Assembly (NCBI GenBank): GCA_013115135.1
Contig: JABANP010000059.1
Span: forward strand, 62,001 to 126,000
Reading direction: 5' to 3'
DNA length: 64,000 nt
Origin: Perkinsus olseni
Lineage: Eukaryota; Perkinsozoa; Perkinsida; Perkinsidae
A program made the translations under genes and the position numbers. Every line of letters starts with the position of its first letter. The first letter of the stretch is position 1. Shown here one piece after another: positions 17,339-62,300 of this stretch. Below the pieces are notes generated by a model that saw nothing but the letters and a program-made list of their open reading frames with translations, did not search any database and was not told the DNA's origin.

Positions 17339-20300
17339 GATAGCAGTGCTGCCAGCGCTCTGGGTCCTTCGGCCGGATGGCAGCGGCGGAGAAGCTTCCA
17401 CTTCCGGGTCCGAGGCGGTAGCTGATGAAGCTCCCGAAACGGAAGTCCCGGAAGATTCGGATGGTATGCTCGATGAGGGGAGTACCGAGTCTGAAGGTGA
17501 GGTGACACCTGAGGGGAACGAGAATGACAGCGAAAGTGAGAGGGAGGAAGAAGGGACTAGCATCGCTGACAATGAGCAGGAAGAACCAGCGGGTGTTGAG
17601 GCGACCGACGATGCCCCAGACGAGGGGAGCACCGAGTCGGGCGATGGCGAAGATGAGCTGACGGCCGAGGGGAGCGAGGATGATGTTAGTAGTTCAGCGA
17701 AAGAGGAAGAGGCTAGCGAGGACTCAGAGAGTAAGCCTGCTGCCGATGGGCTGATGGGTGAATCAACGGGTATTGAGGCGACCGACGATACTCCTGATGA
17801 GAGTAGCAGCGGAGATGAGGAGGATACGGTTGGTGATGAGGATACCGCTGGGGAGGGCTCGGAGAATCAGACTTCTGAGGATAACCGTGGAGGCGGTGCG
17901 ACTGAGGGCTACTTGGAGGGGGATGTGGAGGAACCTAAAGGTGACGACGACGAGGAGGCCGACGTCGGATCGGAGGATGGTGCAGAGGAGCCGACGGGTG
18001 ACTCCAATACTGTTGAGGATTCTTCGGAAGAGGTAGGTGGCTGTGTGAGTACCCCTCCCGGAGCGTCCCATTGTCGAGTCGATTCACTTACTTGCCATGC
18101 GGGCATGCTGAAGGAACCGTGCGCTCAATTATAGCCCGTGCCAGGAACCGAGCTTAGAAGGCTTCGAGGACACTCCTCCGCTGAATGATGAGGGTGATTC
18201 CATCGACCAGCCCTCATCGACCTCTGCTCAGTGGAGCAGTTCGGAGAAGTACCCTGAGGTGAGCTGCCTTCGGGAAGGCGACAGTCTTGGTCGTCGATTA
18301 TACGGTGCATCAGGCCCCGCTGCCACCGACCTTCCCTGCCACTGACGAGTCGGTCAATGCCGAGGTCGAAGGAGAGGAAGGCCATGGCGAGCGAGTTCTC
18401 GATAGGGACGATGATGAGCTGGAAGAGTCTCTAAGAGAGGGTTCGCGTTACGATGACCAGGTAGGCTGGTTCGTGCCGCCACCGCCGTCGCGTTCCTCTT
18501 GCCTGGTGGAGCTTTGACGTTGGCTCCAACGTTAATCGGCCTTTTCTTCGTCGATTACTAGTGGCTCGCAAATCATTCCTCGGTGATCGCTATCCGTCGT
18601 GATCATGGGCGGCAGCTGGCTCATTGAAAGTCTGACCGTCGAGCGGAGCTCCCGAGGGAATTCTCATGTTTCTTCTCAAGCAGGCGCCCGAGGAAGCTGC
18701 TGCCGAGCCTGAGGCTGCCTCGCTGCGAGGCTACAACAGCGATACCGGCGATCAAGACGAGGAGGAGGATGGTGTCCCTGAGGACCTGCCGGGTTTTGAG
18801 GACGCAGATGAGGTAACTACTGGCCAGGGCGTGAGGGTTCTCTTGGGGAACAGGAGGCGGCATGGCAGCTATATGCCAACGAGGATTCGTCGAGCTGTAG
18901 TACGGAAAACCTCAGGTTCACCATCTCGCGAGACTCTCATCTGGACTCGAGGAGGGATTCTCTCCGGGAGATGAGGTGAGTTTTTCGAGCGATCGCCTTT
19001 CCAGTGATGGTGGTCGTGCAGGAGAGCTCTGGTCACGGGGAGCCCGAGGTGAGGCATTTTTCGGAGGATAATAGGGTCGACCGCTACAAGGTGGGTGGAG
19101 GGGAATTCTCTGCGTTCCTTGTTTCCTCCACAGCTGCTACTGATCAGGCCTCCTTCGATGACGAAGCACACAGTAGTGATGAGCTAGAGGCCGACACCGC
19201 TGCGGTCGAGGAGGGCGGCGAGGATGGGGACGTGCTCGACTCGTCAGGGGAAGAGCATAATCCAGAGGTGAGAATTGCCGCAGCGGATTGACACGCCTAA
19301 CGGTCGTGCTCTCAGTCTGAGGAAGCGTTCGGCCCATCTCATTCTGAGGAGAGTGGCGGTTCGTTCGTGCCCACTGATGAGGTGACGGGCTGCTGCCATT
19401 CGGTATAGTCAAGCATTGCACGGTGTTCAGGCTGGCTTTGGCACCTGTCGGGAGTTCCGCCCGCGCCACAGCTACAAATACGGCAAGATCACCGCCTTCG
19501 ATACCTCGGGGAGGAGGTTTAAGGTCGGCCTTCCTCATCGCCTGGTTCTGATGCTGGCAGGGCAGGTTCGACGCCAGTACAAAGGGGAGCCTGAGGTAGC
19601 AGCTTGCGAGGAGGTGGTCACGCGACCGAAGCACCGGGCTGACCTAAACGACTGGCTCATTCCGGTGAAGTGCAACATCATCGGTATCGGTGGCGTCGAG
19701 ACAGTCGAGGGGAAGATTCGCTGTGACTCGGAGTACGAGGCAAGGACGCTCGCCAAGCTGTGGGGCGGCTTCGATGTGAGCTAGCGAGGTCCCGGGTTCG
19801 ATCCTCGGAGCCTGCTTTTCGTCCAGGATCCCTCTTGGGTCCCTGGCCCGTATTCACTTCCCGGTATGGCTGGTAACGGCATGCGGCTGCCAGATGGAGT
19901 GGAAGGCAGCAGCAGCGGGTCGTGGTACACCTACGCTGGGGGCTCCTGGGGCCACCACGCCACCGTAAGGATGGAGGCGACCTTATTTTGCTAACCCTTT
20001 CTCTCTCTCAGGGGGCGAGATCGCAGCCGTCGGCCGGTCTACCGGCAGCACAGGTGAGAGGAGAGCGTGGGCGGTTCACCCGGAAATGGTGTCGTTGTAT
20101 ATTTCAATATGCTGATCGAAACTCGCAAGGGACAGCAGCAAGTTGCTCTCTCATTGTTCTTAGTGAGTATTGGTGGGTTCCCACCTGTCGTCTTTTCAGT
20201 CCTGCACCAAACTCATTGCGGACTTCTCAAAGGGGAAGGCGGATGACATCATCGACTTCGACGCTCGAAAGCGGGAACTCACAGTAGGACTGAGGCTTGG

Positions 20301-23300
20301 CGTTATGCGGGACCGAAGTTCCTGGAGCAGGTCCTCCCACCACTGACGATACATCCACTGCAGTTGAGGTGCCGGCCAGTAGAGGTGCCTCCGGAGGGCA
20401 AGGGAGCTACCTGGCTGGTCCGTGTGGACTGTCGGGATTATGAAGGTGGGTCTGAAGGAGATTTAGGGAGATTTGCGGTATGGAATTCTGCTAGGTCACG
20501 GCCGATCGGGTGGGGGAGTTGTGGTATGCGGCGATCGCGGTGATGCTGAGGTCTTGGCGAGGGCCTGGGGCGGCTTCCAAGTGAGCCTGTGTTACTGGTT
20601 TTGCCTCCTCTATCAGCCCTTCAGGGCGGAGAGGGGGCTGTCGAGACCGGCCCAATTCCCGGCGGGGCGAGGTCCTCGCACTCCTCGGGATGGTTCCAGC
20701 ACGTTGTGATGTACCATAAGGAGGAGGTAAGGACCTCAACGACCACAACGACCACGACGACAACCACTACCACAACGCCGGCCCCGACGACGCGCTCGTG
20801 GTGGTACCAGTTCAAGCACTTCGCCTGGTCGGGGTTCACAACAGTAGGTTACCCTTGCCGCTCAGCCTTCTGTAAGATGCCTGCCTCAGGCTGTCACGAC
20901 CACTACCACTACGACCACTACTACGACCACCACGCCGACGACCACTACCACCACTCAGAGGGTGCGAAGTCGTATGCAGCGCTTCGGCGATCGTTGTTCC
21001 TGTCAGTCGTTCCTTGGGAGCTGCCAGGAGATGGTCCCCCTGTCCGGCCCGAACCACATGCCTCAGCACATCGCCAACTTCCTCTTCGACAACCGCGGCC
21101 TATCCGTGAGTCGAGCCCTGAGCCCAGCCCGCGACGGCGGACTTGTGCCTGCAGGTGTCGCCCTGGGGAGAGAAGGGAGGCCAGGCCCAGACGATGGCCT
21201 GCGACCCAGTCCGAGCCCCTCCTGCCAAGGAGGGCGATGGCCGTTACCGCGTCTCAGCAAGCTGCTACATGGCTGCATCCTCGAGGGTGTATGCTCATGT
21301 TGAGGAGGAGGGGATAGTGTGTGGCTCCTATTGGGATGCCCAGCTCCTCGCGGTTATGTGGGGAGGCTATGAAGCGGTGAGTTGGGTGGAGTTTGGTACG
21401 CGTCTCGACAGCAGGGGCAAGCACGAGTTCGATGTGAGGGGATTAACGCGCTCGTATCGGGGCTGTCGAGTGGTGCATCGAGGGGTTGACAACCGACCCT
21501 AGCACCGTCGCCGGCTACTTTTCTATCGAAAGAATTGCTACTGAGAATAACCTGGCGACCACCGCTTCTCCGTCCGCGATGTTACTCTAAGGGTTGGGTC
21601 TCTCGAGATTTTTATCGCTTCATCAGAGTGCCCCGCCCACAGAGCCCCCTCCTACCACTACTACCACCACGACCCAGGCCCCGAGGGTTCACAGGCAGCA
21701 GTCGGCCTGGTGGATGGTACATGCTGCTGGAAGTTACACTTGGAACCACCCTCCCACGGTGAGTCCCCTTACACGCCATCTTAGGACTTGCTGTTCCTTA
21801 GCCCCGCCCTGACTACCACTAGCACTACAACGACCACCACTACCACGACGACTACTAGGAAGCCCAGGGTGAGCTGAGCCGCTCTTGTGACTCACGCAAC
21901 ACCGCCCTTAGACTTGGTACCCTACTTGCGAGACCATGCGGCCTGACTGGTCCGATGGCGGGCAAGCGGATGAGGTCCTCGATATCTGGCCTCACGGGCG
22001 GCGGCTCCAGGTGGGCTCAAAGAGACCATGCTTGTGGGGGAGCCGCCGGCGCAGGTGCGGCCCTTCTACGCGGAGGGTATCCTATCCCTCACCTGTGAGC
22101 AAGTCATGGAGCTGCCGAGAAAGGACTATGATGTTGGCGGAGGAGGGGAGGGCGAGCAGTGGTCTGTTCCGGTGAAGTGCGGAGACTCTGAAGGTGAGTG
22201 GGATGTCTGCGGTTCTTTCGGTGGTCTCAAGCTGCGCTTGGTTAGGCCAAGGGTTCGTCAGCCAAGGGAGGATCCACTGTGCGTCTCACTATGATGCCCA
22301 GCTCCTTGCCATACACTGGGGTGGTTACAGACCGGTAAGTTTTCCCTAGGCTTGGTGATGACTTCACTTGATGATGTTAGCCGACAACGACCACCACAAC
22401 CACGACTACCACTACAACGACCACAAAATCGACAACTGCTGCGAGGGCCCACCAACGGTCTTGGTATTACTACTACTCAGGATTCGGCGCTCACTCCCAG
22501 GCGGTGGTAAGTTGACACCATCCCCTTCTCTTTATTATTTCCTCTTCACAGGCTCCGCGAACTGCGACTAGTACTACCAGGCCCACCACTACCACAACTA
22601 CGAGGACTACTACGACCAAGGTGACGGCGCTTTGGCCGGAGATCTCGGGGATTCGCTCCGCTTCTCAGGGTCGGTTTCGGCAGCTGTAACAGGATGCAGT
22701 TTGGCGGAATGTTCTCGACGGCACCCTCCTTCGATACTCTGGTCGATGCTCTGGCGTCAGGTCGAGAGCTCAAGGTTGGGGAGGTGCTAGGCAGCGCGGC
22801 CTTCATCAGTCGGTCAGGTTTTACCGGCTGGGTTGCGCAGGGCGCACTCTTTGTTCTGCGACAAAGTCAAGCTGAACCCTACGGCGTGGCAGGGGCAGTG
22901 GTATGTCCCGGTGAATTGTGAAGACTATGACCGTGAGGACGAGCTGACGACGGCGGCCGTCCTGATGATTTCTTGTCTGGTTCAGATCCGGAGAGCTCTG
23001 GTGACGGCAATGTGATCTGCGGATCCTACTGGGAGGCGGAGATGTTCGCAATACTCTGGGGAGGTTATCAGCCTGTAAGTCTCCAGTGGCGGGTCGCTCC
23101 GCCCACAGAGAGAGGGCCCGTTGCAGCACGCTCCAGTCGGCGTGGCGGCCTCGGTCGATATTGGTACTCATACTGCGTTCTACTGACTGGGTATGCCTCA
23201 GGAACTACCACCTACGACCAGTTCAGCCACCACTACTACGACGACAACCACACAGGCCCCCACACAGAGTGCTGGCTGGTGGAGCGGGTTCCAGCAGTTC

Positions 23301-28418: not shown

Positions 28419-31400
28419 TGCAGTTGTGGTTATTGTGCTGTTGCCATATGCTTTGCTCTCACACGCCCTTATTCGTTTTCATCGCAGCCTTGGCCAGCAG
28501 CCAGGTGAGCTACTGCTCGCCGGACACGACAGTTCTGTAGCTCTCCTCAGGCTGCGACTCGACCTGGCGATCCGCTAGGCCCCGCCATCGCCGATATACC
28601 TGACATGCCAGAGATCCCGGACCTTGACTTCGGCGAACCGCAGAGTTCACCGGAAGGAGAGGACAGAGAGGAGCCGGATCTGGAAGATATCGAAGCTACT
28701 CCTCAGAGCTTCGGGGAGACGTTACCGACCTTTTCCGACGCGACAGATCTCTCCGTAAGCCTCATCTCAATCCTCGTTCATCAACTCATCAGCGAGATGT
28801 CGCCGTATCTTTGTGGTACTGTTCCTAGGATTTTCTTATGGTGTCAGTCGGAGAGCCTCGGCCCTGACCAATTGAACGAAGAGTTCCCGACAATCGACGA
28901 GAGCCCTTCAGCTTCTGCTGATCATTCGGTAGCTTGTCCCTCTTCTCTGCTTCACCTCGACTGGCTCGACTGCAGCCAGCGTGGGAAGTCCTTTCGAATG
29001 TTCAGATTACATCCACTGACGCACAGGAGGAGTCGTACGACGATATGGCCCGTGATGAGACCGATGATTCATTCACTGATAACCCGCCGACCGATGAAGA
29101 AGCCATGATAGCCTCCGCTGTTGATGAGCCCGACTCCGATCACGTGGAAACAGATCAGGTAGGCCGATGTCTTCAAGCCACTGATGCTCTGCTGAACTCG
29201 GTAGAGGTCGCTGATCGGGAGTGTTGAATTCGAGTAGTTGTATGCTTATCAGATCCCAGAGCAAGAGTTCGAGACACCTGTAGTCGATCCCGGCTCGGTA
29301 AGTCATGCGTATTGTGGGGTTGGACGTCCACAAACAATGACTTGCTTTTCCAAGCGGCTTTGGCGCAGTAGGTAGCGCGTAGGTCTCATAATCCTAAGGT
29401 CGCGAGTTCGATCCTCGCAGGCCGCATTTTCGAGACAAATTTGCATTACACTGCTCTTGAGAGCACGCGGTCACTTCTGCTTCTCGCAGGCCGAAAGCTC
29501 CAGCGAAGAACCACCACATACGACGAGCTATGATGGAGTCTCTGAGGGCTCTGAGGGCCTCACGGCTGATGCCGAGCCAGTGTCGCCGAGGAAGCCGTGA
29601 ACCCAGAGATGCCCGACGTCTCTGAGGAGGCACAAACACCCCCGTACAGCGATACTGCCGATACCAACGACCTGCAGGCTGCAGAGGCAATCGATGATAC
29701 GTCCGATGATATCAGCAGTGAAGAAGAGGATGACACGTCTGGGCAAGAGAATGATGCGGCTGAGGACGACCTCGAAGACGACGACAGAGCTCCAAATGAA
29801 GAGCTCGATGTCCTCTCGGACGATGATATAGACGATACTGAGGAGCCCTCGTATGAGGCTAATACTGACGAGGACTCTTCGGCTGAGGTGGGTTGCACCT
29901 CCGCTGCTCGCATGGATACCCATTCATATCGTAACGTCATCACGGTAACGGACTAGTAATGTTCGCAGGTGGATTCCGATGCCGGTGAATCGGAGGAAGG
30001 AGACGTGAGGCTATCAGGCTTTGCTTCTTTTGTCCTCCCCACTGAGAATTCGTACTCAGGTTGAATCCACCAGCAGCGATGGGGCAGCGGCCGACGACGC
30101 TGATCAGGGAGCCGCTGAGGAGGACTCGGACGCGCCTGCTGATGTAAATGGTGGAGAGGAGGACACGGCTGAGAAGCAGCCACACATGCCCGCTGTGAGC
30201 TACCCTCCTGCTGACAAGACTGGAACGCGATGCTGCCAGGATGAACTCCTTGACCACTGCCCTGCCGTCTCATTCGAGGGCCATCCGTACTCCAAGATTT
30301 CCTCCATTTCGGATGGCGGCTTCATGGTGAGGTCCTCCTCGACCACTCACTCCCGATACCAGTGTCCCTTCAGATACCGCGAGAGCAAGGCGAAGGACAA
30401 TCCTTCGACAAGATCGAGTGCGCCGGAGCCGAGTCCCGACACGAGCCCGACGCTCGCTACCCCGAGGTCTCGGCCCTCTGCCGGAAGCCCGGCTCGGAGG
30501 GGGCGTTCGACACTTGGGTCAGCCTCAAATGCTTCAACAAAGAAGCAGCTAATACTGTGGCCCGGAAGTGGAACACGTACTCGGTAAGGAAATCTGTCTT
30601 CCCGTGCTTACCGGCTCATCGCTTTGCTGACGTCCTTCAGGACGCCAGGATAACAGCGGAGTGCACCACAGTTGACTTCGGTGATCACACCGAGGAGATC
30701 GGCGAGCTCAACAACGACAAGCGTGAAATTGAGGTGACGATCTTCAAGCTAATAATCTCGGCTTTCACCGATGGCCTCCTCAGTTCGCGGAACCGAGCAG
30801 CCCCGCCCTCCGCTGCCACTCCGCCACTTCTCACCCTACGGACGCCGGAGCTCTGCCTGTCACTTGCGATGGCGCGAATATTAAAATCCAATGCTCTTCG
30901 AATAACGCCGCGGCCTTCCTAGCCGCCGAGTGGGACGCTCCGGTGTCCCACCCGAGGCCTTCGTCTCCACCTGATGTCGCACAGGTGAGGGAGGGTATCA
31001 CGGCTGGCCCGCGGTACACGTATAACACTCAGGAGGAGTTTGGGCAAGATGCTGCGTCACCGCGCCGCGAAATTGACGTGAAGCCTCACGACGACTCCCA
31101 GATGGTATATCGGGGATGGCCAGCTCCTACTCCCAAAGCCCCATCCAAGGCAATCAATATCGGACCGGACGTAGGCTACACGAGTTGACAGTTGTCGATT
31201 CGAATGGCGTTTCTTCAGGCTGAGCAAGAGAGGTGCTCCCAGGCCTCTGTTCTGGGCGCTGGTATCGTTGAAGTTAAGGAGATCCATAAGGGCTCTATAA
31301 CGGTAGGCGTTGGGGCATCTTGCGTCGCATTCTCTGAGATAAACGCCTGCCCGGAGTTTGGAGACCTCGGACGTGGAAATAATAATTTCGTACGTAGCGC

Positions 31401-34635: not shown

Positions 34636-34775
34636 GGTGAGGAAAGGGCCTGCTTTTGCCGTCGAATAGGTATCGCAACCCAACACCCTCGGTGTGATGT
34701 CAGATACTAATGTCCTATCGTTTCTCCATTCTACTGTCTCATATCAATGCTTCGTAATTCCTCTGCTTTTCTTCC

Positions 34776-35503
34776 TTACAGACGTCTACTCCTCATTGAG
34801 CCTGGAAGATAAAATAACCCAGGGGAGATTCGAACCCGCGACCCCTGTACAAGACACGACGCTTACCCATCGGAGGAGGGCGGACGAAGGCCCAGTCAGC
34901 CGTCACCGGTGTCTCCAAGATCATCTTGCCACTCAATCCTAAAACGAATCCCTCCATAATCTAATATCCATGCCCCCCTACCCTACCCGAGATAGCACTG
35001 GAGGCTTCAGTCTTGCTCTCGTACTCGATGAGGCAGTACCCCTTCACGAAGCCTGGCACGGGTAGCTCTTCCCATCAGCATGCCCCTATCGAAACTCACC
35101 TGTTCGTCGGTCCAGATTCAAGTGCAAGTTGCGGACATCTCCGTACTCCTGTGCAACCTAAAAGCAGCCCTACCGAGAGATCTCCCGCCTCCTCGACCTA
35201 CCTCAAACACATCATCCTCTTGAGTCTCCTCATGAAGACCGGTAAGGAAGATGACCCATCCCTCGATAGCTGACAACGAGCATCAAACCGCCGGTGCAAC
35301 GGGCGTGCCCTATATTACATCTAGCAGGGGCACCGGGCTGAGCGGCAGCCGAAGACTCCGAGTCAGTGTCCATGGAGGTGGCACCCTCAGCGCCAGAGTC
35401 GAGGGAGTCGAACACACCCGACTTCCCTGAGTACCTGATCGAAGGCATCCGCAGCAGTCCTACGGAACGCTCGGATGTACCTGTCTTCGCTCATGCTGGC
35501 CAT
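34776..35503 (-). CDS. RBM8A: Y14/RBM8A, exon-junction-complex RNA-binding protein
   Basis: Start ATG at 35503 (MASMSEDRYIRAF). Intron 35386-35434 leads to an acidic Ser-rich segment. After the next intron comes RSIEGWVIFLTGLHEET, the start of the RRM, then YGDVRNLHLNLDRRTG (RNP2/loop) and FVKGYCLIEYESKTEA (RNP1), then ILETPVTADWAFVRPPP and a short Arg tail ending at 34776-34778. All joins keep frame and the whole matches Y14, which pairs with Mago in the exon junction complex deposited on spliced mRNA. The last intron (34802-34866, 65 nt) and the first (49 nt) both contain tRNA-like T arms. Y14, MPP6 and NOP2 are head to tail with gaps of 140 and 200 bp. Confidence 0.9.
34802..34866 (-). repeat. 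tRNA-like intron 2 (Y14 last intron, 65 nt)
   Basis: On the minus strand the donor gtaagcgtc looks like the D-arm 3' strand. An anticodon-loop-like cttgtac (TGT in the anticodon place) follows, then gcggg-ttcgaat-ctccc and a tail ending in gggttatttt. It reads as a tRNA missing its 5' quarter. Confidence 0.7.
35386..35434 (-). repeat. tRNA-like intron 3 (Y14 first intron, 49 nt)
   Basis: Minus strand: gtgtg-ttcgact-ccctc, a worn T arm (three of five pairs). The weakest member of the set. Confidence 0.4.
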
Positions 35504-35703: not shown

Positions 35704-38700
35704 TCACGCCGATGCCTTGGCCTTGCCGCCCTTCTTCTGAGAGACCAACCGTCCGCACAGGTCTCGGAACTGGGCGGCCCTCACCTGGAATTTCCGTTTT
35801 TTGAACGACTTCTCCCTTCTGAGTAGCTGCCTTCCCACTGGCGGGTTTCTCAACCTACAAACAAACACCTTCCGAGTACGAAGCGCCCGCCATGACGATC
35901 GATAACCGTCATGTAAACTCACCTTCTCCTTGCTGGGCTCTACTTTCCTCCTCAGCTTTCTCGGCCCTGAAAATTCTTCAAATACTTCAAAAAATCCCCC
36001 CATCAATTCTACTACTGCTGTTGCTGCTTTTCCAACTTCCGCCTCTTCTTCGAAATCTTAGGCTGCACTTTCTTCTCCTCCGGCGGGGGGAGTTTGCCCT
36101 CCTCTTGCGGGAAGTCGGTCATCACGGTATCCATGAACTCAGTTTTCCTGAAGGCATATCTTTCTCGACCGAATGCGCACAGTGAAGATTCGCTATTACC
36201 ACTTATCCTCACCCCAAGCATGTGTGACAGCCTCGGTCGGTCGACGGTCCTTCCGGACACCTACAGAGACACTCGTAAGTCGAACAAGATGCTCCTCCCG
36301 AACCTTACGTTGGGGGATCTCATTGCTGAACTTCTGCAGTTTGCAAACGAAGAAGCCATCCATATTATGCACCTGCCAGAGGAAATGCAAGGACCTCGAC
36401 GATACGATGGAAGCTTTCCTCATACATCACGCTGTACATGCTACAATCGCCACGCCTCTCAGCACGAAAGAGCGCCAGTGGATGATAGAAGCAGTGACAA
36501 TTCCCTCATTCACTGGGCAGCGCTATTGAGTGAATAATTCTGAGCGGCCCCAGAGATCTTTCTCCCAGAATTGCAAGTAGTAAGCGCTGTAAGGTACGAG
36601 CTGTGGTTATCCTATATTACATGGGGGAAGAATCTTCTAGAATGTTTGAGGCTAGGATGGAACTGCTTGCCACGGAAGGAGGTAAAGCCCTCAGAGCCGA
36701 AGCTGACGACGTCATCGAAGGGAACCACTCGGACATTTCGGGCCTTCAAGATCTGTCAACAACAGGTTATGGCAGCAGCAGGAAGGAGACGGCTCTTACC
36801 GCGTCTATGACCATCTCGTCCTCCTCTACCGCCATGGAGCACGTACCTGTCATGAAGAGATGCCCAACGGTTGCTTCAGAAATCACTCAGGAGCAAGAAC
36901 ACGAGCGCCTCCTTACTGTAGACAATAACGCCGCCCTCCCCGGTGGTTTTGGTGTCAGCATCAACCATATCAATCGCCGTCAAAAGCAGCTCACGTTGAA
37001 GCGACGCATGCTCGGTGAACTCCTTCACGTCTAAAGTAGAAAAGCAGGCCGTGGGTGTCGAACCAGCGACCTTTGGATGTCCTGTCAATGGCCCTACTTC
37101 GTTTAACCTTGATCTTCGGGTCACGGGCGATGATACCAGAACCACTGCACGGGGCATCCAAAAGCACCTGCGTAGATTCCTATTATGCCCGTCAACTCAC
37201 AGGAGGTTCGCAACCGCATTCCAACTGTATCCAACTTTCCCAATACCCTCGACCCTACCCTATCCAACTTCGGCAACATATCTTTAACTTCCTTCCGTCC
37301 ATAGCAGTGACAACGACGTTCGAGAGCCCCAGGCGGTGTACGTTGGCGATGAGGGCCTTGCACCTGAGAATGGCGTATCTTGAGGTTAAGCTGGGCGGAG
37401 ACAAAATCGGCCTACCGATCCTCTCTCAGATCGTTGGCGAACAGGACACCTTGGTTCTGCATCATCTGACCGATGTAGGTGGTCTTGCCTCCAGGAGCTG
37501 AGGGGTAGTCGAATGGTCGTGGGTTCAATCCCGACCCCCTACTATTCTACCTGCACTCATATCAAGGACGGTCTCGCCTGGTCGAGCATTGAGAGCTTGA
37601 ACAGGGACGAAGGACGAGGCGGACTAAGAGCCGAAGATACCATTCCGAAAAACCTTTCGGCTGCGCACTCACCTGTAGCATATAACGACCAGAAAGATAC
37701 TCCGGAGTGGCACCGATGGGTACCGTGGACTCCTTCACAGTGAGGCCCACCTAATGACGCGGAGTCCTCGAGAGCTGCAGAAATTCCCAAGCCCTACCTT
37801 GGTCCATTCTCCCGTGGGTTCTACCTGGCATCCCCGAGCAATCAGCTGCTGTGCAAGAAGGCGTCGACGAGTCTACCACAAAAATAATCTTTCAAACTTC
37901 GCTCCGCCGCCTTTATCCTCACCTTGATAGTATTGGCCCGAATGGTCATCGGTCTCGGCCGATCGTTAGCCTCGAAAAGCTGGACGGCCTCTCCCGGGGC
38001 GAACATGTCCAGTATGTACCTGGAGAGGAATCTTAGGTTGAAGCTGGCACTTGGCGATCTTACGCTGCAAGCTCCTCGTTGTAACCGTAGTAGTTGGCGC
38101 ACAAGCGTGCCTGAGGAGAGGCCAAATCGAAAAAGCAGCTTCGGCTCCGCCCAGGTCGTTACCAGTTCCTCGCGGAGTTCCTTGCTGGTGCACCCTTGCT
38201 TCCGAATAGCCTCCTTGCCAGCAGCCAATAGACGGATGACCTCCTCTAGGCCTGATTAACCATCCAATAACCCAGGTTCTATCCTAGCATTCTACGTTTT
38301 CACACGCCTTCCGCATGACCCAATACTAAGACGCTCCCGTATTACGTTTCTTAAGGGAAGGGATATCCACAACGGCAGCCGAGGTCGCGGCCGCCTCTCC
38401 AGCCTCCTCCGCCTCCTCAAACTCCTCCATCTGAGATCATCAAAAGAAATTCCGATGTCGTTACGCACTGGTAATACGCACGCGCCACCCGAGCAAGGGT
38501 CCCACGCAGATTGCTTTCCTTACCGCCGCTGCCTCCTTTAAGATCCTCCTCATCAGCCTCGTCCGGCAGCTCCTCCTCATCAACATAAGCATCCTCTTCT
38601 TCATCATCATCACTGCCAAAGCCAGCTTCCTCCTCTTCTTCTGCCTCATCATCATCCTCACGGATCCTCTTCTTACTGGCACGGACCAACAGGCCTTCAT

Positions 38701-39129
38701 CGAGGTCCTCCTCTTCGTCGTCGTCATCACCTGGACAACCCAGCAAGCTCCTGAACCCAGTGATCCATTCACGTTGCCAACCTAGAAGGTTCTCCTGATG
38801 GTGCTCAGCATCCTCGACTTCCTCTGCTGCCTCCTCTTCGGCGGCCACTTCCTCTTCAGCCTCCTCCTCTTCGGCGGCTTTTTCTTCGACCTCCTCTTCC
38901 TCAGGCATTGAAGTAGCCTCTACAGGCTCCTCGACAGTCGCCTGGTCCTCTACCTCGTCAGGAACCTTCTGAGTGGGGGCCTGAGGGATGGCGTTCGATT
39001 CCCCTGCCCGCCACTACGGCCAGCATCACCTCCTCCGGTTCCGCCTGCCCTTCAGGCTCTGCCTTCTTCTGATGAGCCCCCTTAATGAAAGCTTGCTGTC
39101 GTCTGACCTTTCTAGAGCGCCTTGCCATT
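35704..39129 (-). CDS. NOP2: NOP2/NSUN1-type rRNA cytosine-C5 methyltransferase
   Basis: Start ATG at 39129 with a basic nucleolar-type N-terminus (MARRSRKVRRQQAF). Intron 38981-39029 follows, then a large Glu/Asp-rich region (38430-38908). The catalytic domain shows TVLDMSAAPGGKTTYIGQ, the AdoMet motif, joined exactly across intron 37498-37550, then RDPKIKVKR near 37105, then HASLQRELLLTAID near 36985 after intron 37031-37097, and NMDGFFVCKLQKFSNE near 36330. The tail is Lys-rich, with the stop near 35704-35706. NOP2 methylates 25S/28S rRNA and is needed for large-subunit assembly in the nucleolus. Three introns carry tRNA-like modules (two antisense, one sense) and one (around 36370-36540) carries dispersed repeat A. 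Exons between 37550 and 38430 and at the 3' end are only roughly placed. Confidence 0.88.
36409..36470 (+). repeat. Dispersed repeat A, copy 3 (in NOP2 intron, antisense)
   Basis: gaagctttcctcatacatc and cgctgtacatgctacaatcg match copy 2 at 44996-45040 closely, then cagcacgaaag. It lies in the intron that precedes the NOP2 exon ending near 36370. Confidence 0.65.
37031..37097 (-). repeat. tRNA-like intron 4 (NOP2, 67 nt)
   Basis: Minus strand: aaaggtc variable-loop-like sequence, gctgg-ttcgaca-cccac, then ggcctgc and a tttt run. Same strand as the gene. Confidence 0.65.
37498..37550 (+). repeat. tRNA-like intron 5 (NOP2, 53 nt, antisense)
   Basis: Plus strand: gtggg-ttcaatc-ccgac with four of five pairs, then ccccta, which can pair with the upstream gaggggt as an acceptor stem. 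The anticodon arm seems missing. Opposite strand to the host gene. Confidence 0.65.
38981..39029 (+). repeat. tRNA-like intron 6 (NOP2 first intron, 49 nt, antisense)
   Basis: Plus strand: tggcg-ttcgatt-cccct then gcccgcca, a tRNA-like 3' end. Three of five stem pairs. Opposite strand to the gene. Confidence 0.5.
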
Positions 39130-39606: not shown

Positions 39607-42162
39607 ATGACACCGGCGACGGTCCTCGACTCGGTCTCCCAGTTTTATATACTGTCACCACGAGGAGATACCATCATCACAAGGGACTGTAATGCCGGGG
39701 AATCTTAGGTTACGCCGTGCAAGATGCAAAATAGGTTCACCAGAGTTGTCGTCTGCTCGCTTTGCTTTCGTCAGTACTGAATATTCTCTTTCAGTCCGCG
39801 GCGATATCGTCAAAGGTACGGCTGAGATCTTCTTCCGGAAAGCGAAGTTTTGGAATGGCGGAGAGCCACCGCCGATCTTCGTAATATAAACGGAATAGGT
39901 TTTCTCGATGCTCGCGCTCCAGGGGATAGATCATACTTGTTTCGATGGACTCGGTCTTGACCTATTTTGTATCTTGCCAGAATCTAGATGGGATATCTTT
40001 CATTTACGTCAAACGATCGGGCCTATACTTCGTCCTCACCACCCAATGTAACGTGAGCCCTATGTGGGCAATAGAACTACTCAACAACATGATCAAGGTG
40101 AGGCCTCGGGTTCAATCCCGGGTACGGGCACTCTCCAGCTCAGGTTATCAAGGACTACTGCGGTGTCCTCAACGAGGAATCCCTACGAAAGAACTTCGTA
40201 CTGGTTTACGAGATCTTGGACGAGATGATAGACTTTGGAATCCCCCAGACTACCAATACTGAGGTATTTCCCCCCTTTGGTGGTACCACTCCTTCACCGC
40301 AACAGCAGGTCCTCCGAAGCTGTGTCCACAACGAGGCGATTATGGTTTCGGATAGCCCCGGCACGGCGACAGGCGGGGGTATATTGTCTTCACTGCCAGC
40401 CTTTAACACTAGCCGGACGATGCCATCCACTGCGGTAGGATGCCTTCTGGGAAAACCCTTCGTACTTACAAGTGGGAGTCTAGGTTCATCGTCCTATCGG
40501 CCCGGTAGCCCAGCACGTACCACAAGCTCCTCCTCAAGTCCCGGTCTCTGCAGCCAACTCTACCATAGCGGCTGCTCAGAGTGTGGCGTCCTCGGTAGGT
40601 CGAGCGGGTGTGGTCCGCTCCGTCACAGGCGCTATTGCAGGTTCTCTCCACAGCGACTTCGGCGGTCTCAAGTATGGCGGCTGGACACATACCAGGCAAG
40701 GCTGCTGCTGGAGACCAGAAGAATGAGATCTTCGTTGATATCCTCGAACGGTTGACGGTGAGACACTTCCTCGCCCTACCATTTGGAGTTTGATGTGACT
40801 TCCCGTAGGTTCTGATGAACGCCCAGGGTCAAGTGCTCAACAGCAGCATCGACGGCTCGATCCAAATGAAATCGTAATGTTGTTGAGGGCCTTTCGAGGG
40901 TATCTTTTGTGGTCGCAGGTATCTCACAGGCAATCCCGAGCTGCGGCTAGCGCTGAATGACGATTTGGAGATCCTCAGTCAGCCTAGGGAGGCCGCTCCG
41001 ATGCCCAACTATGGCGGGGGGCCGCAGCAGGCTGTCGTGCCGTTGGACGATTGTAATATTCGCTGCTAGAGGTGTCAGAAAACTTGTGTCATCTTCTGCA
41101 GGCACGTTCCATCCCAGAGTGGACCTCAACGATTTCGACTCCCAGCGGATCCTCTCCTTCGTCCCACCTGATGGAGAGTTTAGCGTTATGAACTACCGCA
41201 TTGACTCGGGTAGGTCAGGCACGGTGAAGCTGCGCTCAATGCGTATCTTGTCTTCTGGATCTTCCTAGGGGGGACCTCATTCTCGCGACCCTGGGTTTCA
41301 TCCTCGGTTAAGATTCCTACACCACTTTCGTTCATGTCAGAATTCCGTCCGCCCTTCCGCGTGACGCCGTTTGTGGACTCGGTGTCGCAGTACAAGGTCG
41401 AACTAGTGATTAAGATACGGGCTGAGGTAATGGTATCTTAGAATTCTTCGCTGTGCGCAATTTCGACTGAGTAGGTGCCGGAGTCTAACTATGGCGGTAA
41501 TATCCAGATGACGATACCGACCCCGCCTGGCACGGCCTCGGTTAATTGCGACATGTCCGCTGTTGGAGGTGAGTGGTCGTAGGCCTGCTCGAGGGAGGTC
41601 TTTAGTCGGCTTGGGTGGCGTCCACTCCGTTGTACTCAGGAGCGTTCGTAGGGGCCGGCCCGAGAGGGATGCAGAAGCCTCCGCCGGTGCAGCAGAGCGC
41701 TGACTTTGTCGAGTCCGAGAGGAAACTATATTGGAATATCAAGAAGCTGCAGGGGGGCCATGAATGTAATGCCAGCCGCTCATCGTCTACTTGCCACTGT
41801 CGAGTGGCCCGGACTCGGACTGCGCTCCCTTGTGTACGGCGAGAGCCGGCTTAGTCAGGCTAGAACCGATGTACCTTGATTTGAGGGGGGGTTGGTATAG
41901 GGGACAGATGCTGACCTCAGGTACCCTTCGAGCGCGTTTGAATTTCGCTCAGCCTGTCAGCGGGAAGCCGAGGATAGGCCCTCTCGCTCTCACCTTCGAA
42001 GTCCCCATGTATGTGGTTAGCGGCCTTCAAGTGAAGTAATACCAATTCGGCATTCCGTGTCTGTCACGGGTCAACCTTAGATACCTCCGAATAGCAGATC
42101 GGTATCAGGGCATGCCCTATGGATCGACACAGGCACCTCAGGGAGCTCAGGGCAATCCGTAA
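39607..42162 (+). CDS. AP4M1: AP-4 adaptor complex mu subunit
   Basis: ATG 39607. Exon 1 encodes [19 protein letters not shown]. After an intron comes [20 protein letters not shown]. Next come [18 protein letters not shown], then [33 protein letters not shown] and [15 protein letters not shown], the longin-like N-domain with the AP-4 style signature. The mu homology domain follows: [87 protein letters not shown] and [20 protein letters not shown]. The stop is at 42160-42162. At least ten introns keep frame. AP-4 sorts cargo at the trans-Golgi network. Intron 40098-40143 is a 46-nt tRNA-like intron, intron 41766-41920 carries repeat B, and the intron ending near 41100 carries the gctagaggtgtcagaaaac motif. 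Confidence 0.92.
40098..40143 (+). repeat. tRNA-like intron 7 (AP-4 mu, 46 nt)
   Basis: The intron begins gtgaggcc, then tcggg-ttcaatc-ccggg, then tacgggca, like a tRNA 3' end. Almost the whole intron is tRNA 3' half. Sense. Confidence 0.7.
41065..41083 (+). repeat. Intronic motif C, copy 1
   Basis: gctagaggtgtcagaaaac inside the AP-4 mu intron that ends near 41100. Identical, inverted, at 43662-43680. Confidence 0.7.
41837..41880 (+). repeat. Dispersed repeat B, copy 2 (in AP-4 mu intron)
   Basis: cgagagccggcttagtcagg and the following taccgatg-like segment lie in the 155-nt intron 41766-41920. A 24-nt stretch (41837-41860) matches the reverse complement of 46506-46529 at 22 positions by my count, and ttagtcaggctagaaccgat resembles copy 1. 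Confidence 0.65.
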
Positions 42163-42456: not shown

Positions 42457-45326
42457 ATGACGGAGGCACCCGAAAAGGTGACAGTCCCCGCGGAGGTCAC
42501 TCCTACTCTTTCTAGAGGTACAAGCTCGGCTATTACTGACGAGCTTGCCGACCCTCTCAACACTCTTTCAATGGCTGATCTGCTTGGTCATGCGCCTGAG
42601 GAGAGCAGCAGCCCCAAGTGGTCTGATGTAAAGAACGAGAAAATGCTGCCGAGCAGAGGCAGTCAGGAGACGATGAAGGCAGCGGCTAGCTCCCCAGAGC
42701 TGCCCCAGTCTGAGGACCAATCTGTGGGAAATGCCCCCTCACTGAGTACGTCCATGTCCTCAGCGAGCTCTGCTACTGTGGACATAGGAGTTGGAGATGT
42801 TAGCGTTTATGGTAAGATCACCGTGCATCGCTCCGCTTATTTTTGGAAGAATGTTTTGGAAATTTCCTGTGTGCGTCAGGTCGCTCTTCTGATGCGAGCA
42901 TTTGCACCCTTGGCGGAGGCAAGCCTTTGAAGGCTCACAGCTCATTGGGTGAATCGATGTGGGCCTCAACAATCGGCCCGCGAGCTGCAGGCACGATGCT
43001 CAAGGTATTAACACCGTCGTGGACTAGTCGAAGTCGGGGTGCCTCTTGCCCTTTAATAGAAACACCCGGGTTCGAATCGTGGTTACGGCATTCTGGCGTC
43101 GTTTATAGGTGCCGCTGCGTCGGTTCATGGGTCACTCCAAGAGAAAGTCGTGGAACTCCAACATGGAATCGTAAGAATCGGCAGGGTCGCTCAGCCTTTC
43201 ACTAACCCATGGTCGTGGGTTCGAATCCCAGGGGCATCACTTCTATCCCTGCCTTTAATAGGTACATCAGTGCCTTGCGCTCCGTGGGGAAGCATCTTTC
43301 CGGCATGAGCGTGGATCGCGTGAGGAAGCTGGCCGAGAAACCGTTACCTAATATGATGCTTCCGAAAGGAGTGGTACTACTAGAAGCTTCCTTCTCACCC
43401 GTTTTTCGATGCGTCTTTTTCTCTTCAGTTTCGCTTCGCTCAGTCTCTGAACATCGAGGGCCACAAGGAGCCTCTCCATCTAAGTAGTATCTTCGCCATC
43501 ACGCACAGTCAGGAAGGACGCTGACTCGTCGTCGTCTTCACCTCAGCTTGGATGTGGCCCAACGACATCACACCCAAGAGACCCCCGGAGCTTGCCGTCC
43601 AGGAGATCGGGCCCAGCATCAGCGTCCTCAAGACGAACCCGATCATACTGTGAGCGGAAGTGTTTTCTGACACCTCTAGCTAACGTTTTTCCTGTCCTCT
43701 AGGTATGTCCCCGGCACTCCTTTCTGTGTGTGGGGCAAGGGCGTTCATCGCTACATGCTGTATCTCCTGGCTAAGAGGGCGGGCGCTATTGTGTAAGCGA
43801 CGACGAGTCTGTTGTCAGCCGTTGTGAGCCCGATGGTCTCTCACTGCACATTGCCAGGTGCTGTTTATCGAACAACTCCCTACCGCCAGCTTGCTCTTTG
43901 GAGGAAGGGGTGTGCGATATCAAGGCCGTGTAGGAGGAGGGCTCGGTATGAGTATGGGAGAATGACTTCGCCTCGTGTCCAGATACAAGCATTTCATCGA
44001 TGACATTGGAGTGGACCCAGGCTGCATGTCGGTTGCAGGAGACTCTCTCGGTGCTGGCATGGCGACCTTGGCTCTGGTGGGCCTCAGGGACGAAGGGGTA
44101 GGTGTCTGCTACATGCTAGCTAGAGGTGTCAGTAACTTGATACTTAGGTGCCGCTGCCGAACAGTGCCTGCCTGATGTCGCCTATCACGGACTTGGCTGA
44201 CCAGGTCGATGACGACTCCGACGACTTCAGTTCTTCTGCGGGGGGAGAGTCCGCAGTCCTCGACGATACGAAGTCGTCTAGCGTCGATGGTATTACGGAG
44301 AAGCCCTCTGAAGCGGCGGACACGCCTAAGGATGATTCGGCGGACACGAAAAAGGACGAGGAGACTGGCGGCCTTGGAGATGACATCGTGAACAGTGAGG
44401 AGACGGGCGAGGCTGCGAAGGAGCCCGATGGAGGTCAGCCTCAGTCGTCGAAGTCTGAAAGCTCAAAGGCGAATACTGAGGAGGAAAAGAGCGTGTCGAA
44501 ATCCGAGGGTAGTGAGGAGAAACCCGCAGAGAGTAACGAGAAACCCGCGGAAGCCGCTGCCCCTGCTGCCACACCGGCGCCGTCGAAACCAGTGCCGCCG
44601 CCGGAGAAGAAGGAGTGTGTTGATTACGTTCAGCGTGATCTGGTGAGTTTGTGGTACTATCACTCTGTGCTGGGTGATGTGTTGTCGGCTGGTAGGTGTC
44701 AAGTGTGGCTCAGTATGCTATCGGCAACTGCTGTCCGAACTCACAAGAGGTTTCGCCTTACTACGCTGATCTCAGCGGCCTTCCCAACATGCTGGTAAGC
44801 TCCACGGTTTATCACGGAAGCACGTCTGATAGCCGACACTTTGCCTCAGATCCAGGCCGGGCAGGATGAACTTTTCCTTCCTCAAATCGAGAGGTTCGCC
44901 GCTAAAGTGTCGGCTATGAAGAGCCCGGATACTCACCTGCAGTTCCAAGAATACGAGGAGATGGTAGTGTGGAGGGGCATGGCATTCTGCTGATTGAAGC
45001 TTTCCTTATACATCGTGCTGTACATGGTACAATCGCAACGTCTTCCAGCACAGAGGGCTCCGCCGCCGGCTGTCACGCCAATTTTACGCAATAGTGGTCT
45101 CCAAAACTCTTCCAGTCGCCAGCCCGTCACTGCGCTGTTTCAGGTCCACTGCTTCCAGCTATTCAGTTTCTGTACCTCTGAAAGGGACGCTCCCCGCAGG
45201 GCCCTGGGGACCATGGCTGCCTTCGTGAGCTCTTGCCTGGCCTTTCCTTCTCCGTTCACTCTGTTGTGTCAGGTCCAAGAACACATCAGACCGAGGGGAA
45301 CAAGCGACTCGAACCCTCTCGCCTGA
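42457..45326 (+). CDS. Alpha/beta hydrolase (lipase/esterase type) with a long acidic insertion
   Basis: ATG 42457. A Ser-rich N-terminus ends near 42812, then exons encode LRSVGKHLSGMSVDRVRK, SISVLKTNPIILYVPGTP (oxyanion-strand region, lacking a classical HGGG), HRYMLYLLAKRAGAI and EEGVCDIKAVYKHFIDDIG. The nucleophile elbow AGDSLGAGM is near 44040. VPLPNSACLMSPITDL precedes an insertion of about 145 residues rich in Glu, Lys, Ser and Asp (44203-44640). The fold then resumes with YYADLSGLPNMLIQAGQDEL (Asp of the triad) and MVHCFQLF (His), ending VQEHIRP and the stop at 45326. The order matches the hormone-sensitive-lipase-like hydrolases. Substrate unknown. Introns 43005-43108 and 43171-43261 are tRNA-like, two others carry the gctagaggtgtcag motif, and intron 44962-45145 carries repeat A. 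Confidence 0.82.
43005..43108 (+). repeat. tRNA-like intron 8 (hydrolase, 104 nt)
   Basis: ccggg-ttcgaat-cgtgg (four of five pairs) then ttacggca. The region before it (aatagaaacac) may be a remnant of the anticodon arm. Sense. Confidence 0.65.
43171..43261 (+). repeat. tRNA-like intron 9 (hydrolase, 91 nt, tRNA-Glu-like)
   Basis: The fullest relic. After the donor comes cagggtcgctcag, box-A-like, then cctttcacta (ctttcac is the Glu anticodon loop with TTC), then ggtc, gtggg-ttcgaat-cccag and gggcatca. Sense. Confidence 0.7.
43662..43680 (-). repeat. Intronic motif C, copy 2 (inverted)
   Basis: gttttctgacacctctagc, the exact reverse complement of copy 1, in a hydrolase intron (about 43650-43710). 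Confidence 0.7.
44119..44132 (+). repeat. Intronic motif C, copy 3
   Basis: ctagaggtgtcagt inside the hydrolase intron that ends at the acceptor cttag near 44148. A related ctagaggtgtc also occurs near 61727 in the ankyrin gene region. Confidence 0.55.
44996..45085 (+). repeat. Dispersed repeat A, copy 2 (in hydrolase intron)
   Basis: gaagctttccttatacatc, then gtgctgtacatggtacaatcg, and ggctgtcacgccaa at its end. It lies in intron 44962-45145 in the sense direction. Confidence 0.7.
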
Positions 45327-45707
45327 GAAAGGCCAACTTAGACTCTTTTTATCACACACTTTTGTGACCCATTGACGACGTCATCCAACTCTCGCTGTAA
45401 AAGCCACTTTTGCCGAACCGTCACTCGTTAATACGATACACGCCTCACTAGCAACTGATGCTACTGCCTTCAAGATCGTCGTCATCTTGAAGGCATGCTA
45501 TTCAGGTTATTGTTGAATTTGTATAAGTCCTTCGGGCTCGGCGGCATCGGTCCTGCCGCAGGCCCGAGGTTCCCACATTTTGGGGCCATCTGTTCCTCTG
45601 TTGTACGGTGTACCGTTCGGGCTTTCAGTTTCTCCCACTTCTGAGCGATTGCGTGGCGCGTGAATGGGGACGGCCGGAGTGTTCTCAGTCTCTTTGTTCG
45701 CTGCTTC

Positions 45708-46490: not shown

Positions 46491-46505
46491 CGGTCCGCCT
46501 TATGT

Positions 46506-46555
46506 GCCTGACTAAGCCGGCTCTCGGCGTTGGACTTTAAACTCACACACACCGC
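46506..46555 (-). repeat. Dispersed repeat B, copy 3 (inverted)
   Basis: Read on the minus strand, ggtgtgtgtgagttt precedes the agccggcttagtcaggc block, giving the same order of blocks as copy 1 at 6705-6770. Just beside it (46481-46500) is a short inverted repeat ggcgga/tccgcc. It overlaps the 3' end or UTR of the RING gene. Confidence 0.6.
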
Positions 46556-46556
46556 C

Positions 46557-47102
46557 TTATGTGTTTTCAGGGCCCGACGAAATCATAATTGCTTGACTGC
46601 GGTGTCTTTTTCTCTCATTGCATCCTCACCCTCGTGCCTGGATTCAATATGAACTTCAAGGAGAATGCATCATTATTTTACGCGCCATACTACTACTTTT
46701 ATTATCTGCATTGATGAACATCTTAGTCAAAACGGGCAGTGCTTGTGTTATAGTATTCTCAAAGTCGCGGAAACGCCAAGTTCGCATACCAGTAAGAGCA
46801 ACGGGGGATCGTAGCAGCTCACCCAGTGACCATTCGTTTCCGTTACCCAAAGCGAGAAGTGCAACACTGCGTGGCCTATCCTCAACAAAGTTCGCGTTCG
46901 TGTTTCCTGAGCCTCACGGGAAAGACTGAACGGTATTGAGAATTGGTGTCCGTTTGCCTTTGAGATGTTGGGCGTTCAATCCTACCCGAACCCTAGAGTT
47001 GCCCCCAATGAGTTTCGACTACTAAAGCAACGCATCACAGTATGAGAAGCAAATCTTCAACACAGTAGAGTAATCAGCCCACACGTCACAAAACGCTCAG
47101 AG
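46557..47102. other. Intergenic stretch, convergent genes
   Basis: Between the plus-strand RING gene and the minus-strand P5C reductase. No coding exon can be supported. A box-B-like gttcaatcc at 46976-46984 could be a worn tRNA fragment, but the flanks do not fold convincingly. Confidence 0.4.
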
Positions 47103-60892: not shown

Positions 60893-62300
60893 CTAGCCTC
60901 GGTAGGATGTGTGTGTCGAGGTCCTTCGGTAGACAGATAGGCCTCCTACAATGATCAACAGGACGACGGTACTGGCTACTCGTCGAGTTTCGCTCTTCCT
61001 TACCGGCGGCTGGCGTATCTTTACCAATCACGCTGGACTTCAATTTACCTCCCCTGGCTTCCAGAAGATTCCTCAGGATCACGACCGACTCCTTGTCCTG
61101 ATGCCATAGATCTACCACTCTAAGGACTACTATCGCGTTGGAACAGGGGGTGGCATGCCACCAGCTGTGAAGCGCAAGGCTGTGAGAGCTCACGATGTCT
61201 CTTACAATTGTATTACGGGGGTCTACTTCCTGGAGTATGCCCAGAGGGGTGCAGCCACTCCTGATCGAACGACGAAGCGGGGCATCAGGAACACCATTGC
61301 GGGCAACAACGGATCCAGTTATTAGAAAATCGGAGAAAGAAGAAGGCGCCCTACATCAAGGCTCGCCGGAAGGCCGACTCCCTTACCGGTGCCCTTTATT
61401 AGGGTCGGCGCCTAGAGCTAGCAGCTCGAAGGCCAATGGGGGGTTCCTCCACCGTACTGCTAGAGCCAATGCGGTATAGCCGAACATGTCAGGACTAAGA
61501 AGAAGCTAGTACACGGGCTGTGGGATAGGCCGTACAGAGGGCCAGAGAGGGTAGGTTAAAAGTTCTACGATCATTCGACGCATAGCCCTCTAGCAGGGAG
61601 GAGCCAGCCGAAAAGAGATCTGAGTTCATCACCATGAGGCTCCAACGCGAGGAATTAAGACTAGTTGAGCGACTATTCGAGCTGATCACGAGAGACGCCG
61701 AGGGTTGGCTTACCGAAAACGAAGTCTAGAGGTGTCTGCCTGCCCGGCCTGCTCACAGCATCGCCATCTAGCCTACCGCTCCGTGAGAGTGCAACAAGCG
61801 TTTATGTCCATCGATAAGTCCACTACCAGCGTTTGTAACATATGCTTGGCCTTCGTAAAATCCTCTGGGGTCGCGCGCTCACATACTCGATGCACCTTGA
61901 GAGAACGCATCCGATTGGTTCGAATCCAAATGGTCGACTGGACGACAGAATGACGGCCGGGGATTTGACCAGCGGCAACACTAGCGGTCCTTTTGATACT
62001 ACCAGATTTTCGTTGCCCGGGACGCCTTTGACTCGGAGCCCGCCGTGATGCACAAGGATTCTCGCGATCTCAACATCCAATCTGACCACGCACGCATCGA
62101 GAAACGCCGAGTGAACCAAACTCGGGACCTGACCACAAAGAGCAGTAGGGTTCCATCCCGAACCGGGGTGTGGTTACGAAATCGCCAGAGTGCGCCGCAG
62201 CTAAGATCTCCTTCACATCTTCCTTCAACCCCGCTTCGCATGCCTTACGTAGAGCAAGGGAAGAAACGTAACTTAACAGGGCAGCTGCGAAGCTACACGT
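60893..62300 (-). CDS. Ankyrin-repeat protein with C-terminal transmembrane helix
   Basis: Minus-strand exons show ankyrin-type helices: LRKACEAGLKEDVKEILAAA near 62260, then across a 46-nt intron VPSLVHSAFLDACVVRLD and EIARILVHHGGLRVKG (62010-62120), ALALAVRWRNPPLAFELL and ALGADPN (61400-61470), then GCTPLGILQEVDPRNTIVRD (61200-61260). The C-terminus has VASTVVLLIIVGGLSVYRR, a membrane helix, with the stop at 60893-60895. This is a tail-anchored ankyrin protein, a scaffold by inference. The intron 61865-62002 holds an antisense tRNA-like T arm. The start codon was not found and one frame step near 60995 is not explained. Confidence 0.65.
61865..62002 (+). repeat. tRNA-like intron 10 (ankyrin gene, 138 nt, antisense)
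   Basis: Plus strand: attgg-ttcgaat-ccaaa (four of five pairs) at about 61913-61930 inside a minus-strand gene's intron. The acceptor part is not recognisable. Confidence 0.5.

What the first reader, a model, noticed from the sequence alone, without database searches (positions are those of the whole stretch)
19776..62002. Many introns are built around tRNA T-arm modules (possible tRNA-derived introners)
At least eleven introns in seven unrelated genes contain a T-loop GTTCRAN with a partly pairing five-base stem on each side, most with the fuller box B GGTTCRANNC, and often a tRNA-like 3' end (ggca, gcca, gcatca) plus a T-run. They lie at 19776-19826, 29298-29489, 34802-34866, 35386-35434, 37031-37097, 37498-37550, 38981-39029, 40098-40143, 43005-43108, 43171-43261 and 61865-62002. 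Both orientations occur, and several introns are only 46-67 nt, so the tRNA piece is most of the intron. By a rough count the strict box B should occur less than once by chance in this much intron sequence. Introners from DNA transposons are known. Introns made from tRNA or a tRNA-SINE would be, as far as I know, undescribed.
Basis: partly seen in the sequence, partly recalled or inferred. Interest (0 to 1): 0.88.

Follow-up and report, generated by a model that had tools for sequence, protein, structure and literature searches.

The report
Introns built from tRNA 3' ends
In this clam-parasite genome (Perkinsus), roughly one in fifty of the very short introns seen consists largely of a piece that looks copied from the tail end of a transfer-RNA gene, in either orientation, which suggests a new raw material for making introns, although the birth of such an intron was not caught.

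Summary
One holds an intact tRNA-Met gene (29298), one is weak (38981), two fail (35386, 61865). Genome-wide the B box exceeds its control by about 6,100 copies, the A box by about 92; variable loop plus T arm occurs 800 times against 3. So the 5' half of the tRNA is missing. In a 314 kb sample the strict B box is about five times denser in short introns than in exons plus DNA outside genes (P = 1e-4; outside the window P = 0.005). tRNA landmarks that were not searched for (C48, C72, A73, T run) mark the intron hits more than the others (P = 0.0009). Three such introns interrupt conserved proteins. In 8 of 11 the rest of the intron is 34 nt or less. Both orientations occur; no target-site duplication was seen. 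Best reading: copies of pre-tRNA 3' ends, inserted at DNA level, became introns. Against it: one sits where a paralogous repeat has a tRNA-free intron. Gain against relatives was not tested.

The parts
19776..19826 (+). 51-nt intron; tRNA 3' segment nt 44-76 at 19787-19819, sense
   Evidence: gene finder gives the same ends; frame; landmarks 9 of 11; position shared with a paralogous repeat
29298..29489 (+). intron region holding an intact tRNA-Met(CAT) gene at 29354-29426; my gene model ends it at 29590
   Evidence: ARAGORN, Rfam RF00005 67.6 bits; frame
34802..34866 (-). 65-nt intron in a Y14/RBM8A-like gene (name recalled from the motif DWAFVRPP); tRNA 3' segment 34812-34844, sense; my gene model has the same donor but extends to 34592
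   Evidence: frame; landmarks 9 of 11
37031..37097 (-). 67-nt intron in NOP2; tRNA 3' segment 37040-37072, sense
   Evidence: spliced protein aligns without a gap across the junction; landmarks 9 of 11
37498..37550 (-). 53-nt intron in NOP2 within DMSA|APGGKT; tRNA 3' segment 37514-37546, antisense to the gene
   Evidence: landmarks 7 of 11
38981..39029 (-). 49-nt intron with a weak T-arm-like stretch, antisense
   Evidence: same ends in gene model; frame; 12.1 bits (weak)
40098..40143 (+). 46-nt intron in an AP-complex mu gene; tRNA 3' segment 40101-40133 = 72% of the intron, sense
   Evidence: gapless alignment to AP-2 mu; P. olseni protein P0001; landmarks 8 of 11
43005..43108 (+). 104-nt intron; longer tRNA-like sequence ending in the segment 43061-43093, sense; my gene model splits it (43005-43059)
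   Evidence: frame; flanking columns 5.3 bits
43171..43261 (+). 91-nt intron; 3' segment 43210-43242, sense, with a possible D arm upstream (read by eye); my gene model starts it at 43215
   Evidence: frame; landmarks 8 of 11; no second copy of the whole intron in the genome
35386..35434 (-). 49-nt intron by frame; T-arm resemblance not supported; my gene model reads it as coding
   Evidence: frame; not among hits above 9 bits
61865..62002 (-). proposed intron with a chance B box; splice junction not supported

Best explanation
Copies of the 3' part of pre-tRNAs (variable loop, T arm, 3' strand of the acceptor stem, discriminator base, Pol III terminator T run; no CCA) have been inserted at DNA level, in either orientation, into genes of this Perkinsus (P. 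olseni or very close). In the compact cases the inserted segment became the body of a new spliceosomal intron. In the sense orientation the T run lies close before the AG and can serve as polypyrimidine tract. The splice sites come from the target (AG|GT) or from a few added bases. Shown: tRNA 3' character of the segments, their concentration in introns of the sample, both orientations, absence of the 5' half genome-wide, and that three of them lie inside conserved coding sequence. Inferred: insertion of a cDNA or captured fragment (reverse transcription from the U-tailed 3' end that stops early, or uptake at a break), and birth of the intron by that insertion.
For: B box excess about 6,100 (10,458 vs 4,350) against A box excess about 92 (3,893 vs 3,801). 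GGTCNNGGGTTCRANNC 800 vs 3. Short-intron odds 5.1 against exons plus outside DNA, P = 1e-4; outside the window 4.4, P = 0.005. All 18 strict hits in predicted introns, two intact tRNA genes removed: C48 15, C72 13, A73 10, T 42 of 72 and G 5 of 72 in the four bases after nt 73, CCA 0; the 14 strict hits elsewhere: C48 3, C72 4, A73 3, T 18 of 56, CCA 1. Landmark score P = 0.0009; outside the window P = 0.008. Conserved protein alignments through three introns. Rest of the intron 34 nt or less in 8 of 11, while introns reported for P. marinus genes are 39 nt or longer (PMC3101222, passage). Reverse transcriptases present: 150 scored of 421 candidates, 143 without internal stop.
Against: Intron 19776 lies at the same codon and phase as the tRNA-free intron 20581 of a paralogous repeat, so there the intron may be older than the segment. 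No target-site duplication beyond the AG|GT consensus (all short introns together). No second copy of 43171-43261, so no visible recent burst. T-stem pairing does not discriminate: intron hits exceed their shuffles (33 of 54 vs 22.6), but so do exon and outside hits (27 of 42 vs 16.9). Of the 18 strict intron hits, C1:160054, C1:120393, C1:170069, W:61917 and W:45313 have negative flanking scores. The sample's own excess is 14 hits (34 vs 20), about 2,700 if extrapolated, not 6,100; I could not place the rest in introns, and some B boxes lie in an array upstream of an SL gene.
Confidence: 0.5

Rival explanations
1. The introns are older; tRNA genes or tRNA 3' pieces landed in them and later deletions restored the usual 45-55 nt length, leaving mostly the T arm.
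For: All three intact tRNA genes found by ARAGORN in the sample lie within predicted introns (29354-29426; tRNA-Ser and tRNA-His in C1). Intron 19776 shares its position with a tRNA-free intron of a paralogous repeat. Predicted introns are short (median 54).
Against: Random deletion should leave A boxes as often as B boxes, yet the A box excess is about 92 against about 6,100. 8 of 11 introns would have to lose all but 34 nt or less of their old sequence while keeping the segment. An intron of the finder's minimum length (36 nt) plus 33 nt would be 69 nt; 6 of 11 are 54 nt or less.
Confidence: 0.3
2. The segments are kept for a function: B boxes bound by TFIIIC (extra-TFIIIC or boundary sites) or used as promoter elements, which happen to sit in introns.
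For: B-box-like units also occur in an array upstream of an SL RNA gene near U4 (L013) and U4/U5/U1 (L016). Two other short motifs, GGAGTGGTAT and GCGGAGCGAAGC, are also intron-rich in both orientations.
Against: A bare B box site does not need C48, C72, A73 and a T run at tRNA spacing, which mark the intron hits.
Confidence: 0.12
3. Chance matches picked out by eye.
Against: 800 vs 3 for the 17-base pattern; enrichment repeated outside the window.
Confidence: 0.02

Closest known systems
Introners (Gozashti et al. 2022, PMC9860276; abstract and passages seen)
   Same: Sequence-similar introns in unrelated genes; insertion as source of introns; aquatic unicellular host
   Different: Described there as mostly consistent with DNA transposition; the words 'tRNA' and 'SINE' occur 0 times in its main text. 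Here the source looks like a tRNA 3' end, and no TSD was seen
Amoebophrya introner elements (Farhat et al. 2021, PMC7789003; passages seen)
   Same: Repeated introns in a relative of the dinoflagellates
   Different: Those have 8-20 nt inverted repeats, 3-5 nt direct repeats and mostly non-canonical splice sites; here GT-AG and tRNA sequence
tRNA-derived SINEs (recalled)
   Same: tRNA origin; possibly reverse transcription
   Different: SINEs keep A and B boxes at the 5' end and carry a body; here the A box is missing and the segment ends at the tRNA 3' end and terminator
tRNA genes nested in introns (recalled)
   Same: tRNA sequence inside introns; true for 29354-29426
   Different: Intact genes; the other segments gave no Rfam tRNA match at the gathering score
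Intron gain by repair of breaks (recalled, Daphnia)
   Same: Would fit both orientations, many small sources and no mobile-element ends
   Different: Short direct repeats at the borders, which I recall as expected, were not in excess

Membership tests
Introner | Similar introns at unrelated positions in several genes | tested here: met
   seven window introns and four in C1 with tRNA landmarks
Introner | The element makes up the intron, with splice sites at or near its ends | tested here: met
   8 of 11 leave 34 nt or less; not met in 43005, 43171 and C1:101436
Introner | Recent gain: absent from relatives or paralogues at the same site | tested here: inconclusive
   No relative genome at hand. 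One search (window 34000-46600) listed no gene copies, but it did not list its own place either, so it shows no absence. Intron 19776 has a paralogous intron without the segment
Introner | Transposition marks (TSD or TIR; not present in all families) | tested here: inconclusive
   no TSD excess in 636 short introns together; the T-arm introns alone and TIRs were not tested statistically
tRNA-derived SINE | 5' tRNA region with both A and B boxes | tested here: not met
   A box excess about 92, B box about 6,100
tRNA-derived SINE | Many similar copies with a shared body and tail | tested here: inconclusive
   only one intron, 43171-43261, was searched whole: only itself found
Intronic tRNA gene | Complete tRNA found by ARAGORN or Rfam | tested here: not met
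   in the window met only at 29354-29426
Extra-TFIIIC (B box) site | TFIIIC bound without Pol III | not testable with these tools
   needs chromatin data

The most novel reading that the evidence does not exclude
A retrotransposition-like process that turns the 3' ends of pre-tRNAs, taken from many different tRNAs, into spliceosomal introns: the Pol III terminator doubles as the polypyrimidine tract, and thousands of introns of one protist were born this way, in both orientations.
Probability: 0.35. Interest if true: 0.9.

Novelty: new variant of a known kind. Interest (0 to 1): 0.72.

Why it matters
Where new introns come from is an old question. Known introners mostly resemble DNA transposons. 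A class whose source is an identifiable host RNA gene would allow direct dating, give an orientation-free test of DNA-level insertion, and explain part of a genome with very dense introns (median predicted exon 110 bases). Ten searches of the held library (open-licence papers only, listings seen) showed me no title or abstract start on introns made from tRNA.

Tried and rejected
Chance: rejected. Reverse splicing of tRNA into mRNA: disfavoured, since antisense copies exist (37498, C1:71833, C1:101436). Mature tRNA as source: disfavoured, CCA follows nt 73 in 0 of 18. Target-site duplication: no excess of matching between the two junctions over permuted pairs (one search stopped with an error in its second part). 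T-stem pairing as evidence for structure: first taken as support (P = 0.004), dropped because exon and outside hits pass the same test. Gene models: one search timed out, chained genes; one search is the one used. It still merges neighbouring genes and misplaces some ends, and its minimum intron length of 36 nt limits the short tail of the length distribution.

Rows dropped: the 18 elements were chosen by me. They hold 15 strict hits in predicted introns plus C1:53330 and W:43069 (called exon) and C1:61663 (called outside genes), kept because they looked tRNA-like; strict intron hits C1:170069, W:45313 and W:32115 and the intact tRNA genes were left out. One search repeats the counts on all 34 strict hits with only the two strict tRNA genes removed; those are the numbers to use. 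The PWM was trained on the 18, so only its leave-one-out and control results count. The eleven introns leave out C1:54860-54962 (weak, 3.0 bits) and the failing C1:120356 and C1:170067.

Full report
Organism. The assembly has 61.5 Mb in 968 contigs and the window is C545:62001-126000. The Perkinsus-type spliced leader occurs 94 times against 0 for the control (one mismatch allowed). The AP-mu protein of the window is 96% identical over 97% of its length to AP-4 mu of Perkinsus olseni; in the alignment three single residues differ, besides differences of gene model. I take it as P. olseni or a very close species.

What the window shows. The core is present at all eleven places. I trained a simple gene finder on the window, C1:1-200 kb and C445:1-50 kb (314 kb in all): 838 introns, median 54 nt. 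Ten of the eleven junctions splice in frame; 61865-62002 does not within the flank shown. The spliced NOP2 and AP-mu proteins align without a gap to solved homologues across three of the introns, so these must be removed exactly; a P. olseni protein has the AP-mu junction closed in the same way.

More than chance. Genome-wide the strict B box has 5,307 + 5,151 matches against 2,130 + 2,220 for the reversed pattern. With the variable loop, GGTCNNGGGTTCRANNC has 435 + 365 against 0 + 3. In the sample, short introns (120 nt or less) hold 12 strict boxes against 2 for the reversed pattern in 35 kb; long predicted introns 8 against 2 in 68 kb (two of the 8 are intact tRNA genes); exons 11 against 11 in 140 kb; outside genes 3 against 5 in 71 kb (one search gives nearly the same with weak genes left out). 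Short introns against exons plus outside: odds 5.1, P = 1e-4. Without the window, which was the discovery set: 7 against 2, odds 4.4, P = 0.005.

Are they tRNA? Columns outside the searched motif decide. Over all 34 strict hits, two intact tRNA genes removed, the 18 in predicted introns have C48 in 15, C72 in 13, A73 in 10, and a T-rich stretch right after nt 73 (42 T, 18 C, 7 A, 5 G in 72 bases), as a tRNA gene with its terminator would; CCA follows in none. The 14 in exons or outside have C48 in 3, C72 in 4, A73 in 3, and 18 T in 56 bases. A landmark score with fixed recalled tRNA positions gives means of 6.6 and 3.2 of 11 (P = 0.0009); outside the window P = 0.008. The three highest 'other' hits, C1:53330, W:43069 and C1:61663, are probably introns or leaders that my model missed. 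T-stem pairing is above shuffled pairing in both groups and so does not discriminate. In my chosen set of 18, 15 score above zero on flanking columns leave-one-out; C1:160054 (-3.0), C1:120393 (-14.4) and W:61917 (-28.7) fail. The 9 exon and 2 outside hits not in that set score -5.2 or lower; of the intron hits not in it W:32115 scores 1.8, C1:170069 -1.2 and W:45313 -14.4.

They lack the 5' half. The A box pattern TRGCNNARYNGG, with the same information content as the B box pattern by my count, has 3,893 matches against 3,801. Of the three intact tRNA genes in the sample one fits the A box pattern and two the B box pattern. On that thin calibration, whole tRNAs would bring some 3,000 extra A boxes with the B box excess. 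Three tRNA genes in 314 kb extrapolate to about 600, so tRNA genes explain only a small part of the B box excess.

How much of the intron. In eleven supported introns (seven in the window, four in C1) the 33-nt segment is 32 to 72% of the intron; in eight the rest is 34 nt or less. Only 10 of 838 predicted introns are under 40 nt, but my finder allows none under 36; introns of P. marinus genes were reported as 39 to 1,622 bp (PMC3101222, passage). Eight are sense to the gene and three antisense. In sense introns the segment ends 5 to 19 nt before the end of the intron.

Mechanism. Shown: identity, location in the sample, orientation mix, loss of the 5' half, 3' end of pre-tRNA rather than mature type. 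Inferred: DNA-level insertion of reverse-transcribed or captured pre-tRNA 3' pieces, followed by use as an intron. Reverse-transcriptase domains are plentiful (150 scored of 421 candidates, 143 without internal stop). The two junctions of short introns match no more than permuted pairs, so target-site duplication is not supported. The one intron searched whole has no second copy, so the segments are old or come from many source tRNAs.

Evidence against creation. In the repeated-domain gene at 18-25 kb, intron 19776 follows WGGF at the same codon and phase as intron 20581 of a paralogous repeat, which has no tRNA sequence; four further repeats have introns one to three codons further on. There the simplest view is an older intron whose content was replaced.

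Scale. The sample's excess is 14 strict boxes (34 against 20) in 314 kb, about 2,700 per genome, below the 6,100 of the whole-genome count; the sample seems poorer than average. Whether the rest is intronic I could not read. At L013 and L016 an array of B-box-like units lies upstream of an SL gene near U4 (L013) and U4, U5, U1 (L016), so not all boxes are intronic.

Not alone. Introns also carry two other short motifs in both orientations: GCGGAGCGAAGC, 1,749 against 6 genome-wide, and GGAGTGGTAT, 1,104 against 135. A 130-bp repeat fills most of intron 44964-45143, with at least 39 copies elsewhere at 82-89% identity.

Literature. Gozashti et al. 2022 (PMC9860276: abstract and passages), Farhat et al. 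2021 (PMC7789003: passages), a 2011 Perkinsus paper (PMC3101222: passages; 69.2% of 104 genes with introns) and a 2022 Perkinsozoa SL paper (PMC9399869: passages). None of the passages seen describes tRNA-derived introns.

Noticed in passing
whole genome; related forms in window introns 37873-37922 and 42812-42879: GCGGAGCGAAGC occurs 1,749 times against 6 for the reversed pattern, and it and related forms sit in short introns in both orientations. Unexplained.
   Followed up: partly
C1 introns at 32812, 33241, 56417, 58577, 70839, 94258, 158624: GGAGTGGTAT core in short introns, both orientations; 1,104 against 135 genome-wide.
   Followed up: partly
44964-45143: 180-nt intron mostly filled by a 130-bp repeat with at least 39 copies at 82-89% identity elsewhere; parts of it also in predicted introns 1759-2055 and 36373-36620: a possible conventional introner family.
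   Followed up: partly
L013:613-1248 and L016:681-1262: Array of B-box-like units (steps of 34-35, 50-51 and 76-85 bases in L016) upstream of an SL RNA gene with U4 nearby (U5 and U1 too in L016); L014 has a T-arm segment about 100 nt upstream of SL.
   Followed up: partly
41053-41101 and 43650-43702: Two otherwise different introns share 19 identical bases in opposite orientation; other pairs of 17-20 bases exist.
   Followed up: no
18033-24850: Gene with about seven repeats ending in WGG[FY]; six are followed within one to four residues by a predicted intron.
   Followed up: no
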